A DNA stretch of 50,792 nt, taken from Candidatus Dietzia intestinipullorum (GTDB taxonomy: Bacteria > Actinomycetota > Actinomycetes > Mycobacteriales > Mycobacteriaceae). Below are positions 2,492 to 8,693 of the stretch, piece by piece. Both the position numbers and the translations under genes were made by a program. The DNA is taken from positions 1-50,792 of the forward strand of contig DWWP01000027.1 in assembly GCA_019119635.1 (NCBI GenBank), in the 5' to 3' direction. The notes under the pieces are model-generated. The model ran no database searches, was not told where the DNA came from, and saw nothing but the letters and a program-made list of their open reading frames with translations. How positions within the stretch are numbered: the stretch's first letter is position 1; each line of letters begins with the position of its first letter.

Positions 2492-3490
2492 TCAGTTCAG
2501 ACCTGCGTAGGAGTGCAGTCCGGAGATCACGATGTTGATGAAGAACAGGTTGAAGATCAGCACCAGGAACCCGGCGATGTTGATCCACGACGCCCGCTTG
2601 GGGCCCCACCCGGACGTCGCGCGCGCGTGGAGGTACACGGCGTAGAGGACCCACGAGATGAACGAGACGGTCTCCTTGGGATCCCAACCCCAGAAACGGC
2701 CCCAGGCGCTCTCCGCCCAGACGGCGCCCAGGATGATGCCCACGCTGAAGATCGGGAATGCGATCACCGCCGTGCGGTACGCCAGTCGGTCGAGGGTGTC
2801 CGCCTGAGGCAGCGGGCGGGCCAGGCCGGCCGCCCAGCCCTTCTCCTCGCCCTGCGGCTGCCACACCCGGATCAGATGCAGGACCGAGGCGACACCGGAG
2901 ACCAGGAAGATGCCGGAGCCCAGCGACACGATCGACACGTGGATCGGGAACCAGAACGACTGCAGCGCGGGGACGACCGGAGCGGCCTCCGAGTACAGGT
3001 GGGTGCCGCCGAAGTACAGCAGGAGCAGCACCGGCACCAGCACGAACGGCCACGCCACCTGGAAGGCGGGCTTACGCAGGAAGACCAGGGCGGCGACCAC
3101 GCCGAGCGCACACGTCACCGAGATGAACTCGTACATGTTGCCCCACGGGAAGCGGCCGATCGCCAACGCGCGAACCACCAGCGACCCCACGTGGAAGACG
3201 AAGGCCAGGCACACGAAGAGCTGCGTGATCCGCGCCCACCCGGCACCACGCGTCGAGGAGGTCTCCTCGTCGCCGGTGTCGGTGATCGACGACGACTCGG
3301 TGAGCCCTTCGCCGTCCGTGGCGACGAGCTCGCGCGTGGCGGTCTTCTGCACACGGAACCCCGCGTAGTAGACGACCGACGCCAGCAGCGCCAGTGCGTA
3401 CAGCCCGAACGCGGTGCGGTAGGCGAGGTCGCTGTAGTTGGCGAGGTTCTCGTCGACGGGTAAGCCCTGGGCCAGGATCGCTGTGATCAC
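2492..3490 (-). CDS. ccsB: Cytochrome c biogenesis protein CcsB/CcsA (heme handling, system II)
   Basis: 332 residues with about eight membrane segments. It carries the tryptophan-rich heme-binding signature of the family (WGRFWGWDPKE, near residue 275) and conserved histidines in neighbouring helices (FPIHVSIVSLG; YLHARATSG). With ResB it forms the membrane complex that carries heme outward and ligates it to CXXCH motifs of apocytochromes c. The GTG start at 3490 overlaps the resB stop by four bases (GTGA), implying translational coupling. Equivalent to Rv0529 in M. tuberculosis by order. It is the last gene of the resB-ccsB pair. Confidence 0.93.
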   Translation of the reverse strand: MITAILAQGLPVDENLANYSDLAYRTAFGLYALALLASVVYYAGFRVQKTATRELVATDGEGLTESSSITDTGDEETSSTRGAGWARITQLFVCLAFVFHVGSLVVRALAIGRFPWGNMYEFISVTCALGVVAALVFLRKPAFQVAWPFVLVPVLLLLYFGGTHLYSEAAPVVPALQSFWFPIHVSIVSLGSGIFLVSGVASVLHLIRVWQPQGEEKGWAAGLARPLPQADTLDRLAYRTAVIAFPIFSVGIILGAVWAESAWGRFWGWDPKETVSFISWVLYAVYLHARATSGWGPKRASWINIAGFLVLIFNLFFINIVISGLHSYAGLN

Positions 3491-5160
3491 CGGGTGTCGT
3501 CCTTCCTGGAAGTGTCATCGGCGGTGCCGTGACTGGATGCAGTGTCGCCCTTGTCTGCGGGTCCGGGCAACACGGGTGTGGCGGTGGCGACCTTCACGAG
3601 CTTGTCACGCAGCTCGTCGAACTCGCGCCCCCAGCCCGACCTGTCGGTCTTGGCCAGGCCTCCGAGGTCGACCCGCGTCACCTGGTCGTCGTCGGTGGTG
3701 ACCCGGGCCCAGATACGACGACGACGGATCATCAGACTCAGGACCAGCCCGCCCATCATCACCACCGCGGACACGCCGACCCAGATCTGCGTGGGATCGT
3801 CGGAGACCTGGATGTTGATGAACTCGTCGGCGCCGTCGAAGCGGACCTCCGTGCCGTCGGGCAGGGTCGTGGATTCGCCCGGCTCGAGATTGACGCGTGC
3901 CTCCCGCTCCATGGCGCCCGACTCGATGAGTGACTGGTCGAGCGAGAAGATGTTCTGGGGCCGGCCGGAATCCAGGCCGACGTCGCCCTGGTAGACGTCG
4001 ATCGCGACCGCCGGGTCGTCCATGCGCGGGAAGCGCGAACTCAGGATGGTGCCGTCGAACTCCGCGGTGGGGGCGAACAGTCCCTGGATGGCGACCTGGT
4101 TCTGCCGTCGTTCCGCCAGCTCCGGGTACATGCCGGCGGGCGGATCGAAGCGGAGCATGCCCGAGGACAGGAACGTCATCAGGTCCGTCGGCTCCCAGTG
4201 CTGCGTGTCGGTGCGGGTCTCGCCGTTGGGGAACGTCACCGTGAACGTGGGCGCATATCCGTGCCCCTGCAGGTAGACGCGGGTACCGCTCATCCGCAGG
4301 GGATGGTTGACGCGCATCTCGTAGGGCTCCCACGACTCGGGGTCGGTGGTCGTCACCTCCTCGCTGTACCGCACGTTGGAGGTGAACATCTCCGCCTGGC
4401 CGTTGGGCAGGTAGTCGGCGCGGAAGTCCTCGACGTCGATGCAGAACGGCTCCAGGTCCGTCCCGTCCACCAGCAGGCCCGCGCGGAACGAGTCGTACGC
4501 GCTGGGGGTGGTGTTGCAGAACGCGGGCGAGTCCTCGCTGGCGATCACCACCCGCATCCCCTCGGCGTACACGAACTTGCCGGCGGCAAAGAAGATGAGC
4601 AGCGCGAGCAGACCGAAGTGGAAGACGATGTTGCCCACCTCGCGCAGGTAGCCGCGCTCCGAGGAGAACTCGATGGCCCCCTTCACACGCCCGTCACCGT
4701 CGTTGCGGCGGACGCGGAAACCCTTGAGCGCGGCCTCCACCTGATCGGCCGCCTGCTCCGGCGTGGCCGAGGTGCGATACGTGGCGTGATGCGGCATCCG
4801 CGAGAGGTTGCGCGGCGTGACCGGCGGCGGGGTGCGCAGCTGCCTGACCAGCTCGAAGGACCGGGGCGTGAGGCAGCCGATCAGGGAGATGAACAGCAGC
4901 ACGTAGATCGCCGTGAACCACCAGCTGGAGAACACGTCGAACAGTTGCAGCGTGTCGTAGAACTCGCCCAGCCAGCCGTTCTCGGCGATGTACTCGTTGA
5001 CGTTGCCCTCGTTGAGATTGCGCTGCGGCAGGAGGGCCCCCGGGATCGCCGCAATCGCGAGGAGGAAGAGAAGGATCAGGGCCGTGCGCATCGCGGTGAG
5101 CGTGCGCCACGAGTTGCGGAGGAAGGCTCTGACTGAGGCGGTTCTCGACATGGGGTCCAT
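3487..5160 (-). CDS. resB: Cytochrome c biogenesis protein ResB/Ccs1
   Basis: 557 residues. Three N-terminal membrane segments (TALILLFLLAIAAIPGALLP; WWFTAIYVLLFISLIG; VGNIVFHFGLLALLIFF) are followed by a large extracytoplasmic domain and a last helix near residues 465-485. This is the standard ResB topology. The protein partners CcsB in system II cytochrome c maturation. It starts MDPMSRT; an ATG three codons further in is an alternative start. In M. tuberculosis the orthologue directly follows ccdA. Here a two-gene insert on the other strand separates them, so resB-ccsB needs its own promoter. Confidence 0.93.
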   Translation of the reverse strand: MDPMSRTASVRAFLRNSWRTLTAMRTALILLFLLAIAAIPGALLPQRNLNEGNVNEYIAENGWLGEFYDTLQLFDVFSSWWFTAIYVLLFISLIGCLTPRSFELVRQLRTPPPVTPRNLSRMPHHATYRTSATPEQAADQVEAALKGFRVRRNDGDGRVKGAIEFSSERGYLREVGNIVFHFGLLALLIFFAAGKFVYAEGMRVVIASEDSPAFCNTTPSAYDSFRAGLLVDGTDLEPFCIDVEDFRADYLPNGQAEMFTSNVRYSEEVTTTDPESWEPYEMRVNHPLRMSGTRVYLQGHGYAPTFTVTFPNGETRTDTQHWEPTDLMTFLSSGMLRFDPPAGMYPELAERRQNQVAIQGLFAPTAEFDGTILSSRFPRMDDPAVAIDVYQGDVGLDSGRPQNIFSLDQSLIESGAMEREARVNLEPGESTTLPDGTEVRFDGADEFINIQVSDDPTQIWVGVSAVVMMGGLVLSLMIRRRRIWARVTTDDDQVTRVDLGGLAKTDRSGWGREFDELRDKLVKVATATPVLPGPADKGDTASSHGTADDTSRKDDTR

Positions 5161-5237
5161 CTGAGGTTCGCGGCGCGTCTCCCCGGCCCGGACGCCTCGA
5201 GGGCGCCCGTGGGCCGGGGTGACGCCGGTTCCGTACC

Positions 5238-5243
5238 AGATTA
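5238..5243 (-). promoter_or_regulatory. Candidate -10 element for resB-ccsB
   Basis: TAATCT on the minus strand, about 78 bases upstream of the resB ATG, fits TANNNT. No convincing -35 element is seen. A promoter is expected here because the erm-SDR insert has cut resB off from the genes upstream. Confidence 0.35.
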
Positions 5244-5290
5244 GTCGGCACGACCTGAGCGATTTCTGAGGGTCGGCGCCGGTCGGTTGT

Positions 5291-5296
5291 TAGACT
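5291..5296 (+). promoter_or_regulatory. Candidate -10 element of the erm leader transcript
   Basis: TAGACT is followed by seven bases and an ATG at 5304, so transcription would begin at or next to that ATG. The same hexamer and spacing occur in front of the epimerase gene (23858-23863). There is no clear -35 hexamer, which would suit an activator-dependent promoter. Confidence 0.5.
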
Positions 5297-5303
5297 GCCA
5301 CCC

Positions 5304-5534
5304 ATGTGTTGCTGCGCCGCTCACACGATCATCCGGGGGCCGCCGCTTCTAGCGGCGGATCCTTACCTGTCGAAGGACGCATCCGCCGCCCCGCGGTCCA
5401 GCCGGGCGGTGCTCTCGCATGCCCGGACGCACGCACGACATCCGGAGCGTCTCTTCCCATGCCCACCTTCCGGGGCGGTCGTCACGAGCACGGCCAGAAC
5501 TTCCTCACCGACACCCGCACGATCGATTCGATAA
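5304..5534 (+). CDS. Possible leaderless upstream ORF with a poly-cysteine start (erm leader)
   Basis: A frame of 76 codons begins MCCCAAHTIIRG at the predicted transcription start. Three cysteine codons (TGT TGC TGC) come directly after ATG. It runs out of frame through the erm ribosome-binding site and 76 bases into erm. The product resembles no family and the later codons may matter only as ribosome traffic. Short leaderless ORFs starting with cysteine runs are known cysteine-responsive attenuators in mycobacteria. Whether this one is translated is inference. Confidence 0.35.
   Translation: MCCCAAHTIIRGPPLLAADPYLSKDASAAPRSSRAVLSHARTHARHPERLFPCPPSGAVVTSTARTSSPTPARSIR
5340..5478 (+). promoter_or_regulatory. 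Structured leader of erm with competing hairpins
   Basis: Segment 1 (CCGCCGCT, 5340-5347) pairs perfectly with segment 2 (AGCGGCGG, 5351-5358) around a three-base loop. Part of segment 2 (5352-5360) can instead pair over nine bases with segment 3 (ATCCGCCGC, 5381-5389). The overlapping CCGCCCCG (5386-5393) is complementary to CGGGGCGG at 5471-5478, just after the erm start codon. Mutually exclusive stems that can hide the start region are the hallmark of erm translational attenuators; the mechanism here is inferred. Confidence 0.4.
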
Positions 5535-6247
5535 TCAGTGCGGTCGCCGACACGACGGGGCCGATCATCGAGATCGGACCCGGTCACGGCAATCTCACCC
5601 GCCCATTACTAGAACTGGGCCGCCCGCTCACCGCGGTGGAGATCGACGGGCGGGCCATCGAGTACCTGCGCGCCTCCGTGCCCACCGGGGTCGAGCTGGT
5701 GCACGCCGACTTCGTGGACTGGCGCCTACCCGCCACCCCGCACGTGATCGTGGGCAACCTGCCCTTCCACCTCACCACCGCGATCCTCCGCAAGGTCCTG
5801 CACAGTCCGTCGTCGGAGGCAGCGGTCCTGGTGGTGCAGTGGGAGGTCGCCCGGCGGCGCGCCGGGGTGGGAGGCGCGACCATGATGACCGCCCAGTGGT
5901 GGCCGTGGATCGAGTTCACGCTCCACCGGCAGGTGCCCCGTCACGCCTTCGATCCGCGTCCCACGGTCGACGGGGGCCTGCTGGAGCTGACCCGCCGGGC
6001 CACTCCGCTCGTCGCGAGGAGGGAGAAAGGCGCGTACCGCGAGTTCGTCCACGCTGCGTTCGCCGGCAGGGGCCGCGGCATCGCGGCGATCCTGGCAGGC
6101 GCGGTGCCCCGATCGCGCGCGGGCGCGGTCCGCCCGGCCCTCACGCGCGCCGGGGTGCGACCGGACGCGCTGCCCCGGGACCTGACCGCGCAGCAGTGGG
6201 TCTTCCTGTTCGAGACCCTGGCACGGCGGCGGAACGTGCGCTCCTGA
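5459..6247 (+). CDS. erm: Erm-type 23S rRNA (adenine-N6) methyltransferase
   Basis: 262 residues. It would methylate A2058 of 23S rRNA and so block macrolides, lincosamides and streptogramin B. The N-terminus GRHEHGQNFLTD is characteristic of mycobacterial-type Erm. It is followed by SAM motif I (EIGPGHGNLT), motif II (VEID) and the catalytic motif IV NLPFHLTTAIL. The MQWEVARRRA-like segment (VVQWEVARRRAGVGG) and MMTAQWWPW are also typical of the Erm(38)/(39) group. The RsmA/KsgA paralogue normally has NLPYN/NIPY here, so Erm is preferred. The ATG at 5459 follows GGAG at 5444-5447. An in-frame GTG at 5306 would add 51 residues unlike any Erm. The gene sits on the opposite strand inside the cytochrome c biogenesis locus. 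Confidence 0.9.
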   Translation: MPTFRGGRHEHGQNFLTDTRTIDSIISAVADTTGPIIEIGPGHGNLTRPLLELGRPLTAVEIDGRAIEYLRASVPTGVELVHADFVDWRLPATPHVIVGNLPFHLTTAILRKVLHSPSSEAAVLVVQWEVARRRAGVGGATMMTAQWWPWIEFTLHRQVPRHAFDPRPTVDGGLLELTRRATPLVARREKGAYREFVHAAFAGRGRGIAAILAGAVPRSRAGAVRPALTRAGVRPDALPRDLTAQQWVFLFETLARRRNVRS

Positions 6248-6322
6248 TCACCCGACGGAGCCGTGCGCCTGTGCACAGCACGCGCGGGCGGGCTGAGCCG
6301 CCGGTTCGCCGGACGACGAACG

Positions 6323-6334
6323 AGAACACGTTCT
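6323..6334. promoter_or_regulatory. KstR-like operator (AGAACACGTTCT palindrome)
   Basis: A perfect 12-base palindrome, AGAAC-AC-GTTCT. With flanks it matches the mycobacterial KstR consensus TNNAACNNGTTNNA at all but the first position. It overlaps the -10 element of the following dehydrogenase gene, where a bound repressor would block transcription. KstR controls sterol catabolism; the assignment rests on motif similarity only. Confidence 0.5.
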
Positions 6335-6339
6335 AGTCT
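6334..6339 (+). promoter_or_regulatory. -10 element of the SDR gene (leaderless)
   Basis: TAGTCT ends six bases before the ATG at 6346 and overlaps the right arm of the AGAAC/GTTCT palindrome. Transcription would start on the A of the start codon. No purine-rich ribosome-binding site precedes the gene. Confidence 0.5.
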
Positions 6340-6345
6340 CAGGGT

Positions 6346-7185
6346 ATGGATATGCAGGAGAAATCAGTCCTCGTCACCGGCGGCGGCAGCGGAATCGGAG
6401 CAGGGATGGCCGAGGAGATGGCTCGCCGCGGAGCGCTCGTGACGATTGTCGGGCGGCGCGCCGACCGCCTGGACGAGGTGGCGGGACGCATCGGCGAGGA
6501 GACCGGCCGAGCCGGCACCGTCCACGCACACGTCGCCGACGTCACCGACGAAGACGCGGTGGCCGGGGCGGTCGGGGCCGCCATGGAGCACGGGGGCGGG
6601 CTCGACGGCGTGGTCGCCTGCGCCGGAGGAAGTGAGACCATCGGCCCGGTGACGCAGATGGACACCGGGGCATGGAAGCGGACGGTGGATCTCAACGTCA
6701 ACGGCATGATGTACACGCTCAAGCATTCGGCGAGGGCGCTGGTGGCCGCCGGAGGTGGGTCGTTCGTCGCGATCTCATCGATCGCCGCGAGCACGACGCA
6801 CCGATGGTTCGGCGCGTACGGGGTGACCAAGTCCGCGGTCGACCACCTCGTACGGCTGGGCGCGGACGAGCTGGGGCCGAGCAACGTGCGCGTCAACGGG
6901 ATCCGGCCCGGGCTGATAGAGACCGAGCTGGTCGAGCCGGTCCTGGGTGACCCGGCGCTCGCGGAGGACTACCGGGTCAACACGCCCCTGCCCCGGATCG
7001 GCAGGGTCGACGACATCACCCGACTCGCCGCATTCCTCCTCGGCGAAGGCTCCACATGGCTGACCGGACAGGTGATCAATGTCGACGGCGGACAGCAGCT
7101 GCGGCGGGGCCCCGATTTCTCCCCGATGCTCGAGCCACTGTTCGGCGAGGGGGGCCTGCGCGGGGTGGTGGACTCTCAGGACTGA
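6346..7185 (+). CDS. Short-chain dehydrogenase/reductase, possibly steroid or lipid related
   Basis: 279 residues of a classical SDR. The nucleotide-binding glycine motif TGGGSGIG is at residues 11-18, a GRRADR segment follows the second strand, CAGG stands in the NNAG position, the catalytic serine is in AISSIAAS and YGVTK is the YxxxK motif. VNVDGGQ-type residues (INVDGGQQL) close the fold. Substrate specificity cannot be read from sequence. The KstR-like operator over its promoter suggests induction by sterols or related lipids. It lies 98 bases after erm on the same strand, has its own promoter, and completes the insert that splits the ccs cluster. Confidence 0.85.
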   Translation: MDMQEKSVLVTGGGSGIGAGMAEEMARRGALVTIVGRRADRLDEVAGRIGEETGRAGTVHAHVADVTDEDAVAGAVGAAMEHGGGLDGVVACAGGSETIGPVTQMDTGAWKRTVDLNVNGMMYTLKHSARALVAAGGGSFVAISSIAASTTHRWFGAYGVTKSAVDHLVRLGADELGPSNVRVNGIRPGLIETELVEPVLGDPALAEDYRVNTPLPRIGRVDDITRLAAFLLGEGSTWLTGQVINVDGGQQLRRGPDFSPMLEPLFGEGGLRGVVDSQD

Positions 7186-7194
7186 CGCCGGTGC

Positions 7195-7226
7195 GCCTGC
7201 TCGGGCGGGAGTCCGATCGGGCAGGC
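7195..7226. terminator. Candidate two-way terminator between SDR and ccdA
   Basis: GCCTGC (7195-7200) and GCAGGC (7221-7226) form the outer stem, with TCGG/CCGA inside and a small bulge. It lies in the 48-base gap between two convergent stop codons. There is no U-tract. Confidence 0.35.
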
Positions 7227-7233
7227 GGCCGGG

Positions 7234-8094
7234 TCAGATCGGCAGCGTGGTGTCCGAGATGGCGAAGTCGCGCAGCCAGTACACGAACTCGGCCCACAGG
7301 CCCGAGAGCAGCAGCAGGCCCACGATGATCAGCATGACGCCGCCGAAGACCTGGATACGCCGGGTGTTGCGCTGCAGCCAGCCGACCGTCCGCATCGCCC
7401 ACGTGGAGCCGAACGCCACCAGGACGAACGGCAGGCCGAGCCCGAGGCAGTACGCCACGATCAGCAGGACGCCGCGGGCCGCGTCGACACCGGTACCGGC
7501 GGCCACCGAGAGCGCGGCAGCCAGCGTGGGCCCGAGGCACGGTGTCCAGCCGAGGGCGAACACTGCGCCCAACAACGGCGCGCCGACCCAGGTCGACAAT
7601 GCCTTGGGCTGCATCCGGGTATCCCGCTGCAGGGCGGGGACGAGACCGATGAAGACCAGGCCCATGACAATGGTCACCACGCCGCCCAGCCGTTGGAGGA
7701 GCTCCTGCTGGGGCGCGAGGTACTGCACCGTTCCCAGGACCATGGCGCTGAGAAGGACGAACACCACCGTGAAGCCGGCGACGAACAGCAGCGATGCGCC
7801 CACCACGCGCAGGCGCGAGCTCCGCCGGGAGCGACGCTCCTCGAGCGTCATGGTCGCCGCCGCGGCGCGCTGACGCTCGGCGGCGACCGCGGTGACCGGC
7901 GGCCGCTCGGCGCCCACGACGCCGGCCAGGTACGCGACGTAGCCGGGGACGAGCGGGATCACGCACGGAGAGGCGAACGACACCAGCCCCGCGAGCAGGC
8001 AGGCTCCCAGGGCGAGCAGGATCGGCCCGCTGGCCGCCGTCTGCTGGAAGCTCTCCCCCACGCTCTGGGCGAGCACGATCACGTCCGGGCTCAC
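7234..8094 (-). CDS. ccdA: Cytochrome c biogenesis thiol-reductant transporter CcdA
   Basis: 286 residues of the DsbD/CcdA membrane family. Paired cysteines sit in the first and fourth helices (SFASPCVIPLVPGYVAYLAG near residue 35; LGWTPCLGPTLAA near 175). They pass electrons from cytoplasmic thioredoxin across the membrane to ResA, which keeps apocytochrome cysteines reduced. A 50-residue charged loop (about 60-110, rich in R, E and A) between the first helices is longer than in short bacterial CcdA. The GTG start at 8094 shares GTGA with the resA stop; this internal start is preferred because the upstream frame is antisense-like. Same position as Rv0527. Confidence 0.93.
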   Translation of the reverse strand: MSPDVIVLAQSVGESFQQTAASGPILLALGACLLAGLVSFASPCVIPLVPGYVAYLAGVVGAERPPVTAVAAERQRAAAATMTLEERRSRRSSRLRVVGASLLFVAGFTVVFVLLSAMVLGTVQYLAPQQELLQRLGGVVTIVMGLVFIGLVPALQRDTRMQPKALSTWVGAPLLGAVFALGWTPCLGPTLAAALSVAAGTGVDAARGVLLIVAYCLGLGLPFVLVAFGSTWAMRTVGWLQRNTRRIQVFGGVMLIIVGLLLLSGLWAEFVYWLRDFAISDTTLPI

Positions 8095-8693
8095 GCCGGG
8101 CTGACCTCCTCGGACAGCAGGCGCTCGATGGTGTCGTGGAGCTTGTCGTCGGTGATCTCGACCAGGAACACGGCGGCCACGCGATGCTGCTTGTCCAGCA
8201 GCAGAGTCGTGGGCACGACCGAGGTAGGGAACCCGTGCAGCGCAGCGACGGCGGCGTTGCTGGGGTCCCAGATCGACGGGTAGGTGACGCCGTTGTCCTC
8301 GATGAAGTCGACGGGCTTCTGCCTGTTGGGGTCCCGCAGGTTGATGCCGAACACGGTGGCGCCCTGCGGGCCGAACTCGTCCTGCAGTCGTTGCAGATCG
8401 TCGACCTCGGCCCGGCACGGCCCGCACCACTGGCCCCAGGTGTTGAGGACCACGACCTCCCCCGCGTGGTCCTCCTGCAGGTTGAGCGTGGTGTCGGGGT
8501 CGAGTATGTCCGGGCCGGTGATCTGGTCGACCGGCTTACGATCGGCCGGCGGGTCGTAGTAGATCTCGAGCTGGCCGTCGGGGCTGATGAACTCGAATGT
8601 CTCGCCCTGCGCCACGGCGTCCGTGCCGGTGGCGCAACCGGCACCGAGGACACCGACCATCAACAGGGCGCCGAGAGTGGACTTGAGGCGCAT
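8091..8693 (-). CDS. resA: ResA/TlpA-like thiol-disulfide lipoprotein
   Basis: 200 residues. A lipoprotein signal ends in the lipobox LGAGC (Cys20), so the protein should be anchored on the outer face of the membrane. The thioredoxin-like domain has its redox centre WCGPC at residues 89-93 and the cis-proline region SVVPTTLL near residue 158. Partnering CcdA, it reduces the CXXCH cysteines of apocytochrome c before heme attachment. It starts three bases after the stop of the phosphatase gene and overlaps ccdA by four bases. Equivalent to Rv0526. Confidence 0.92.
   Translation of the reverse strand: MRLKSTLGALLMVGVLGAGCATGTDAVAQGETFEFISPDGQLEIYYDPPADRKPVDQITGPDILDPDTTLNLQEDHAGEVVVLNTWGQWCGPCRAEVDDLQRLQDEFGPQGATVFGINLRDPNRQKPVDFIEDNGVTYPSIWDPSNAAVAALHGFPTSVVPTTLLLDKQHRVAAVFLVEITDDKLHDTIERLLSEEVSPA

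What the first reader, a model, noticed from the sequence alone, without database searches (positions are those of the whole stretch)
5291..5534. Leaderless poly-cysteine upstream ORF overlapping erm
TAGACT ends seven bases before an ATG followed at once by three cysteine codons. The frame runs 76 codons through the erm ribosome-binding site and start, out of frame. Leaderless poly-cysteine ORFs act as cysteine-responsive attenuators in mycobacteria, but for sulfur metabolism genes. Here the same device could tie erm expression to cysteine (mycothiol precursor) level or to ribosome stalling by antibiotic.
Basis: partly seen in the sequence, partly recalled or inferred. Interest (0 to 1): 0.74.

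Follow-up and report, generated by a model that had tools for sequence, protein, structure and literature searches.

The report
Leaderless erm leader, frame altered
The short gene in front of this antibiotic-resistance gene is this strain's version of a macrolide-sensing leader peptide that sits, apparently without any untranslated leader, in front of most related resistance genes examined in actinobacteria, but here its reading frame runs past the usual stop, which probably changes how the resistance gene is switched on.

Summary
In detail: TAGACT 5291-5296, seven bases, ATG 5304, three Cys codons, open frame to 5534 across the start of an Erm methyltransferase. The interpretation changes. 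In 106 of 118 other actinomycete Erm loci (88 of 100 distinct stretches) the same place holds a 10-25-codon ORF starting 6-8 bases after TAnnnT and ending in an Arg-X-Arg tail (86) or Arg-Pro-Leu (20 near-identical copies). Controls: 0 of 4000, 0 of 1092, 0 of 17. Only close relatives were sampled; the one distant Erm checked (L139) has none. Arg-X-Arg is required for telithromycin arrest on ErmDL (PMC8298421). So this is an Erm attenuator with a probably leaderless leader, not a cysteine attenuator: 37 of 67 distinct leaders lack Cys. In the window the ATG frame and the conserved tail and stop (5350) are in different frames, so the 76-codon ORF is a derived run-through form. Sampled genes of the assembly show no convincing frame error (64 genes), so the change is probably real. 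By analogy with ermC frameshifting (PMC5009743) I predict leaky or constitutive erm. New variant of a known kind; nothing tested at the bench.

The parts
5291..5296 (+). -10-like hexamer TAGACT, 7 bases before the leader ATG
   Evidence: Among 187 distinct candidate leader starts in Erm loci, TAnnnT ends 7 bases before the start in 58, 6 before in 19, 8 before in 5, 1 before in 9, and 0-4 at every other offset from 0 to 35.
5304..5534 (+). Leader ORF as it stands in the window: 76 codons, starts Met-Cys-Cys-Cys, crosses the erm start out of frame
   Evidence: no Pfam match.
5350..5352 (+). TAG that aligns with the leader stop of the closest relatives; not in frame with ATG 5304 in the window
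5340..5358 (+). Hairpin 1:2 (arms 5340-5347 and 5351-5358), around the conserved stop
   Evidence: I6; fold of 5336-5364 -19.6 kcal/mol, z -3.3; 80.0% of cells paired in 33 leaders.
5352..5389 (+). Competing pairing 2:3 (arms 5352-5360 and 5381-5389)
   Evidence: I4; fold of 5350-5394 -20.7 kcal/mol, z -3.35; 83.8% of cells paired, 5 of 9 pairs with changes on both sides, 0 of 500 shuffles reach the covariation score.
5386..5478 (+). Possible pairing 3:4 (5386-5393 with 5471-5478, inside erm) enclosing the erm ribosome-binding site and start
   Evidence: I8; fold of 5381-5485 (z -0.9, weak).
5402..5426 (+). Conserved spacer hairpin (5402-5408 with 5420-5426)
   Evidence: 99.6% of cells paired in 33 sequences, but nearly invariant, so covariation is silent.
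5444..5447 (+). GGAG, likely erm Shine-Dalgarno
   Evidence: Sequence; a GGAG-like stretch stands upstream of erm in the relatives of alignment A1 (by eye).
5459..6247 (+). erm, 23S rRNA (adenine-2058-N6) methyltransferase, 262 aa
   Evidence: NF000499 equivalog 272.6 bits, cut-off 212; best named relative Erm(46) 333.4 bits, below that model's own cut-off of 503.

Best explanation
This is the attenuator of an erm gene. A transcript starting at or next to ATG 5304 (inferred) is translated at once as a leaderless leader peptide. In relatives the drug-bound ribosome is expected to stall at Arg-X-Arg just before the stop, covering hairpin arm 1. Arm 2 then pairs with arm 3, which frees the erm ribosome-binding site. 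In the window the ATG frame leaves the conserved frame before the Arg-X-Arg tail and the stop, so ribosomes run through the hairpins and over the erm start. I predict that they unfold the block without needing drug arrest, giving leaky or constitutive erm with weaker inducibility, as described for ketolide-induced frameshifting on the ermC leader. Shown: sequence, conservation, pairing, frame difference. Inferred: transcription start, stalling, direction of the effect.
For: A leaderless-type ORF with an Arg-X-Arg tail stands upstream of 106 of 118 other Erm loci examined: 86 with strict [RK]x[RK], and 20 near-identical erm(X)-type copies with Arg-Pro-Leu, a motif I admitted after seeing them. 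Without identical stretches it is 88 of 100. The same rule gives 0 of 4000 random points and 0 of 1092 upstream regions of coding-like ORFs in one genus relative (G015), and 0 of 17 KsgA-like loci, one place counted twice. In this genus 9 of 9 other genomes with a strong Erm match keep a short in-frame leader. Competing pairings 1:2 and 2:3 are present, with compensatory changes in 2:3. The +X+ motif is required for telithromycin arrest on ErmDL (PMC8298421 passages). Frameshifted translation into the spacer permits ermC initiation (PMC5009743 passage). No convincing frame break in 64 genes, 28,065 codons of the assembly.
Against: No transcript or ribosome data exist here. The altered leader is seen in one copy among the 119 loci examined. 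Sampling leans to close relatives: one search kept 80 of 128 loci, and one search gave loci for 30 of 64 matches; the 34 more distant ones were not fetched, and the only one of that group examined (L139, 39-40% identity) has no leader. Hairpin 3:4 over the erm start is weakly supported (55.8% of cells for the version tested; z -0.9). A ribosome crossing the erm start could block initiation instead of helping it. Erythromycin arrest on ErmDL tolerates loss of the Arg residues (PMC8298421 passages), so some inducibility may remain.
Confidence: 0.68

Rival explanations
1. The frame difference is a sequencing or assembly error, and the strain has an ordinary short inducible leader.
For: All 9 other genus copies have a short frame. 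The ATG-to-stop distance is one base off a whole number of codons, beside a run of G; G or C runs of exactly five occur 107 times in the window. Only one assembly of the species was reachable.
Against: No convincing frame break in 64 genes / 28,065 codons of the same assembly, 25 of the genes in this window; at that rate an error inside about 15 codons is unlikely. One flagged break was dismissed by me as non-coding.
Confidence: 0.2
2. A cysteine-responsive attenuator: slow decoding of Cys codons ties erm to cysteine or mycothiol supply.
For: Three Cys codons at positions 2-4; Cys enriched in the leaders (45 of 970 against 0.76%); Cys-rich uORFs are described in mycobacteria (PMC4633059 passages).
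Against: 37 of 67 distinct leaders lack Cys; 44 of 45 Cys lie 8 or more codons before the stop, away from the hairpin; the gene is not sulfur metabolism.
Confidence: 0.03
3. Frame choice is the switch: ribosomes normally read 76 codons, and drug-bound ribosomes slip near the G run into the frame of the conserved tail and stop, or the reverse.
For: The ATG lies in one frame and the conserved tail and stop in another, on either side of a G run; ketolide-induced frameshifting regulates ermC (PMC5009743 passage).
Against: No second copy of this arrangement among the 119 loci; I did not test the site for slipperiness; a simple indel explains it as well.
Confidence: 0.05
4. A chance ORF; erm is expressed from another start and the leader is dead.
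For: Frames of 76 or more codons are common here (149); two relatives have lost the leader start (L031, L048).
Against: Promoter spacing, ATG, hairpin arms and the aligned leader sequence are retained.
Confidence: 0.04

Closest known systems
ErmDL-type macrolide-arrest leader (Arg-Leu-Arg; PMC8298421, passages read)
   Same: Relatives share a short ORF with +X+ before a hairpin switch upstream of erm.
   Different: Here initiation looks leaderless; the ErmDL cassette printed in that paper has a Shine-Dalgarno-like GGAGG. The window's own frame has no [RK]x[RK].
erm(X) leader of Corynebacterium (PMC3350403, passages read: leader gene 'might be involved' in translational attenuation)
   Same: erm(X)-type loci (name recalled, not scanned) have the same position, size, spacer hairpin and TAnnnT-N6/7-ATG.
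   Different: The widespread near-identical copy ends Arg-Pro-Leu; the window runs on to 76 codons.
Ketolide-induced frameshifting on the ermC leader (PMC5009743 passage; original paper not held)
   Same: Translation beyond the leader stop into the spacer and its hairpins.
   Different: There drug-induced; here written into the DNA.
Leaderless amino-acid attenuators of Streptomyces lividans (PMC8079986, passages read)
   Same: Leaderless leader peptide before a hairpin.
   Different: They are assigned to amino-acid and tRNA-ligase genes; the gene here is a drug-resistance methyltransferase.
Cys-rich uORFs of mycobacteria (PMC4633059, passages read; the later attenuator paper was not held)
   Same: uORF with Cys codons.
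   Different: cysA2 uORF has the Cys cluster at its C-terminus; others stand upstream of hypothetical or cysteine-metabolic genes.

Membership tests
Erm 23S rRNA methyltransferase | Match to the curated Erm model above its cut-off | tested here: met
   NF000499, 272.6 bits, cut-off 212.
Macrolide-inducible erm attenuator (leader peptide plus hairpin switch) | Short leader ORF ending upstream of erm | tested here: not met
   Window ORF ends at 5534, 76 bases into erm; met in 106 of 118 other loci with the promoter spacing, and in 5 more without it.
Macrolide-inducible erm attenuator (leader peptide plus hairpin switch) | Arrest motif in frame before the stop | tested here: not met
   No [RK]x[RK] in the 76-residue product; strict motif in 86 of the 106 leaders.
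Macrolide-inducible erm attenuator (leader peptide plus hairpin switch) | Mutually exclusive hairpins 1:2 and 2:3 | tested here: met
Macrolide-inducible erm attenuator (leader peptide plus hairpin switch) | Sequestered erm ribosome-binding site in the off state | tested here: inconclusive
   Predicted for 5381-5485, but z -0.9; alternative RBS pairing in 55.8% of cells.
Macrolide-inducible erm attenuator (leader peptide plus hairpin switch) | Induction by macrolide | not testable with these tools
   Needs an experiment.
Cysteine-responsive leaderless attenuator | Cys codons at the pause point near the stop or hairpin | tested here: not met
   Codons 2-4; in the leaders 44 of 45 Cys are 8 or more codons from the stop.
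Cysteine-responsive leaderless attenuator | Cys conserved in orthologues | tested here: not met
   37 of 67 distinct leaders have none.
Cysteine-responsive leaderless attenuator | Downstream sulfur or cysteine gene | tested here: not met
   Erm.
Leaderless ORF | Transcript starts at the start codon | not testable with these tools
   Only indirect: TAnnnT spacing 7.

The most novel reading that the evidence does not exclude
The window shows a natural frame-based erm switch: the leader's two frames meet next to a G run, and the share of ribosomes taking the run-through frame, changed by macrolide, sets erm output, instead of classical stalling. More broadly, actinomycetes would share an old leaderless class of drug-sensing leader peptides.
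Probability: 0.06. Interest if true: 0.8.

Novelty: new variant of a known kind. Interest (0 to 1): 0.5.

Why it matters
A 2024 survey of erm genes judged uORFs not universal, with some forming families but no pattern common to all (PMC11264731, abstract and section 15 read; the word leaderless does not occur in its main text). The loci examined here show one consistent design in close actinomycete relatives: no visible 5' leader, a peptide usually ending in Arg-X-Arg, a stop beside or inside a hairpin. If leaderless initiation is confirmed, drug sensing in this group starts with a different kind of initiation from that of ErmDL as tested. The window adds a natural variant that could test whether run-through is enough to turn erm on. 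I found no description of leaderless erm leaders (10 papers holding erm, leaderless, leader peptide and macrolide: passages of one, PMC4128351, and the listing only for nine) nor in the listings; the library holds open-licence papers only.

Tried and rejected
Cysteine sensing: rejected. Sigma-70 and terminator scan of 5100-5600: one promoter-like site inside erm (5508-5535), none at the leader, no terminator. Rfam: no match in 5150-5700. Plasmids: 34 records, all 60-80% identity, none covering 80% of the query. Pfam on the 76-residue product: none. Whole-leader fold: only z -1.5, so I rely on pairings and comparison. Covariation over 1:2, the tested 3:4 and the spacer hairpin together is not above shuffles; only 2:3 is. 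RNAalifold finds little covariation (term -0.56) and puts 2:3 in a register three columns away from mine; sliding by 3 also pairs 62-69% of cells, because the arms are repetitive. A first frame audit (22 genes, 2 flagged) used untrimmed ORFs. I then kept only ORFs with a coding GC pattern (64 genes, 1 flagged), and dismissed that one because its first piece has a non-coding GC pattern by codon position (0.54, 0.72, 0.95). Misses, 12 of 118: L086, L043, L111, L125 and L138 have the tail ORF but no TAnnnT at 6-8; L006, L007 (contig edge), L031, L048, L075, L124 and L139 have none. In one search the L075 row is spurious. 18 of the 119 stretches repeat another exactly, in part probably the same genome reached twice (L003/L084, L004/L087). 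Paper searches that gave nothing on leaderless erm leaders, listings only: (0 papers).

Full report
WHAT IS THERE. The sequence facts of the finding hold. TAGACT lies at 5291-5296, seven bases follow, ATG is at 5304, and codons 2-4 are Cys. The frame is 76 codons and ends at 5534, 76 bases into erm, in another frame. The downstream gene is an Erm methyltransferase: NF000499 at 272.6 bits against a cut-off of 212; the best named model is Erm(46), below that model's own cut-off. The length alone means little, because 149 ATG-start frames of 76 or more codons exist in this GC-rich window, and the stretch upstream of erm lacks a coding GC pattern.

RELATIVES. I compared upstream regions of 90 Erm loci and 29 more from across the class. 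The 119 include the window itself as L083. They are the nearest matches: one search kept the best 80 of 128, and one search gave loci for 30 of 64 matches. A leader was defined without reference to the promoter: an ORF of 8-30 codons whose last [RK]x[RK] (or Arg-Pro-Leu, added after seeing the erm(X)-type copies) lies within 5 codons of its stop. Among 187 distinct candidate starts, a TAnnnT hexamer ends exactly 7 bases before the start in 58, 6 before in 19, 8 before in 5, 1 before in 9, and in 0-4 at every other offset up to 35. At locus level 106 of the 118 others have a leader with spacing 6-8: 86 with strict +X+ and 20 near-identical copies ending Arg-Pro-Leu. Leaving out identical stretches it is 88 of 100. 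There are 67 distinct peptides of 10-25 residues, 46 of them 12-15. The 12 misses are listed under Tried and rejected; among them is L139, the only member examined of the more distant group (34-40% identity), so the design may stop at the boundary of the close relatives. The same rule gives 0 of 4000 random points and 0 of 1092 upstream regions of coding-like ORFs in G015, and 0 of 17 KsgA-like loci (L001 and L105 are the same place). The nearest named record is Dietzia cercidiphylli (L003), whose leader region is identical to that of L084, a same-genus genome; so the window is probably from Dietzia.

THE GENUS. Of 23 genus genomes, 10 have a strong Erm match, the window's included. The nine others all have a short leader in frame, in the closest ones ending Ile-Arg-Asp-Arg-Arg-Phe (or Ile) and stop; one of them (L086) has a -10 that reads GACACT. 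In the window the aligned tail and stop (TAG at 5350) are present in the DNA but not in the frame of ATG 5304: the distance from ATG to stop is 46 bases, not a whole number of codons. The two frames part near the run of G before hairpin arm 1. This is why the frame runs on to 76 codons, and the product contains no Arg/Lys-X-Arg/Lys.

IS THE FRAME DIFFERENCE REAL. I compared 271 kb of this assembly with 2.0 Mb of a genus relative (G015). In 64 genes and 28,065 aligned codons, 25 of the genes in this window, one break was flagged, and its first piece has a non-coding GC pattern. An earlier, looser pass had flagged 2 of 22. So assembly error is unlikely but not excluded; no second isolate was reachable.

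HAIRPINS. Arms 5340-5347/5351-5358 (1:2) and 5352-5360/5381-5389 (2:3) compete, and both fold well in isolation (z -3.34 and -3.35). In 33 aligned leaders (chosen by me from the loci with leaders, plus the window and L086) 2:3 is kept in 83.8% of cells, with both-side changes in 5 of 9 pairs, and no shuffle of 500 reaches its covariation score; RNAalifold prefers a register three columns away. 1:2 is kept in 80.0% of cells without covariation, and a spacer hairpin (5402-5408/5420-5426) in 99.6% with hardly any variation. A lid over the erm start (5386-5393 with 5471-5478) is predicted but weak. No Rfam family matches.

MECHANISM. The +X+ motif is needed for telithromycin arrest on ErmDL with the middle residue in the P site; with erythromycin it is less critical (PMC8298421, passages). 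In the relatives a ribosome arrested there would cover arm 1 and let 2:3 form, as in other erm attenuators. In the window the arrest motif and early stop are out of frame, and ribosomes would traverse the spacer. For ermC, frameshifted translation into the spacer unfolds the mRNA and permits initiation (PMC5009743, section 28 passage). I therefore predict leaky or constitutive erm; blocking of erm initiation by traversing ribosomes is the opposite possibility. The leader start is missing in L031 and L048 (by eye), so leader decay occurs elsewhere among the relatives.

CYSTEINE. Cys is 45 of 970 non-initiator residues in the 67 leaders, against 0.76% in ORFs of a relative. It is most frequent at codons 2 (11 of 67) and 3 (10 of 67). 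But 37 of 67 leaders have none, and 44 of 45 Cys lie 8 or more codons before the stop. The mycobacterial cysA2 uORF has the cluster at the C-terminus (PMC4633059, passages). The poly-Cys start is thus a recurring but dispensable trait; a preference for small residues near the drug, as for Ser4 of ErmDL (PMC8298421 passages), is one possible reason (inference).

NOVELTY. Erm attenuation, +X+ leaders, an erm(X) leader and leaderless amino-acid leaders are known (PMC8298421, PMC3350403, PMC8079986, passages). A 2024 survey found erm uORFs not universal and without a pattern common to all families (PMC11264731, abstract and section 15). A leaderless erm leader design shared by actinomycetes was not found in the listings, which cover open-licence papers only. 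I call this a new variant of a known kind.

Noticed in passing
L072, L060, L063, L066, L080 and other erm(X)-type loci, 149 bases upstream of erm: 20 near-identical leaders in several genera end Arg-Pro-Leu-Thr-Ser/Asn-Arg instead of Arg-Leu-Arg, so this widespread (probably mobile) form has lost the +X+ motif kept in L059, L079 and L082.
   Followed up: partly
Leaders in L116, L119, L123, L034, L050, L135, L127 and others: Cys is about six times more frequent in Erm leader peptides than in ORFs of a relative, mostly in the first half; the reason is unknown.
   Followed up: partly
L050, L113, L114, L119, L123, L130 and others, within 45 bases upstream of the leader -10: 17 of 106 promoters match a loose AAAH..GG pattern resembling a WhiB7/WblC site (recalled motif; at least one match, L082, looks spurious); the window does not obviously.
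   Followed up: partly
window 3487-8693: erm and a short-chain dehydrogenase (6346-7185) sit between cytochrome c maturation genes ResB (3487-5160) and CcdA/TlpA-like (7234-8693); in G015 the ResB-CcdA gap is about 9 kb, so this spot looks variable.
   Followed up: partly
L031, L048: L048 keeps the leader tail and stop, and L031 only the stop and the hairpin arm after it, but the leader start is missing in both: other natural losses of the leader (by eye).
   Followed up: no
L086, L088, upstream of the leader: A palindrome like ACTGTACCGTACGGTTGGTACAGT lies next to a possible divergent gene, perhaps a repressor site.
   Followed up: no
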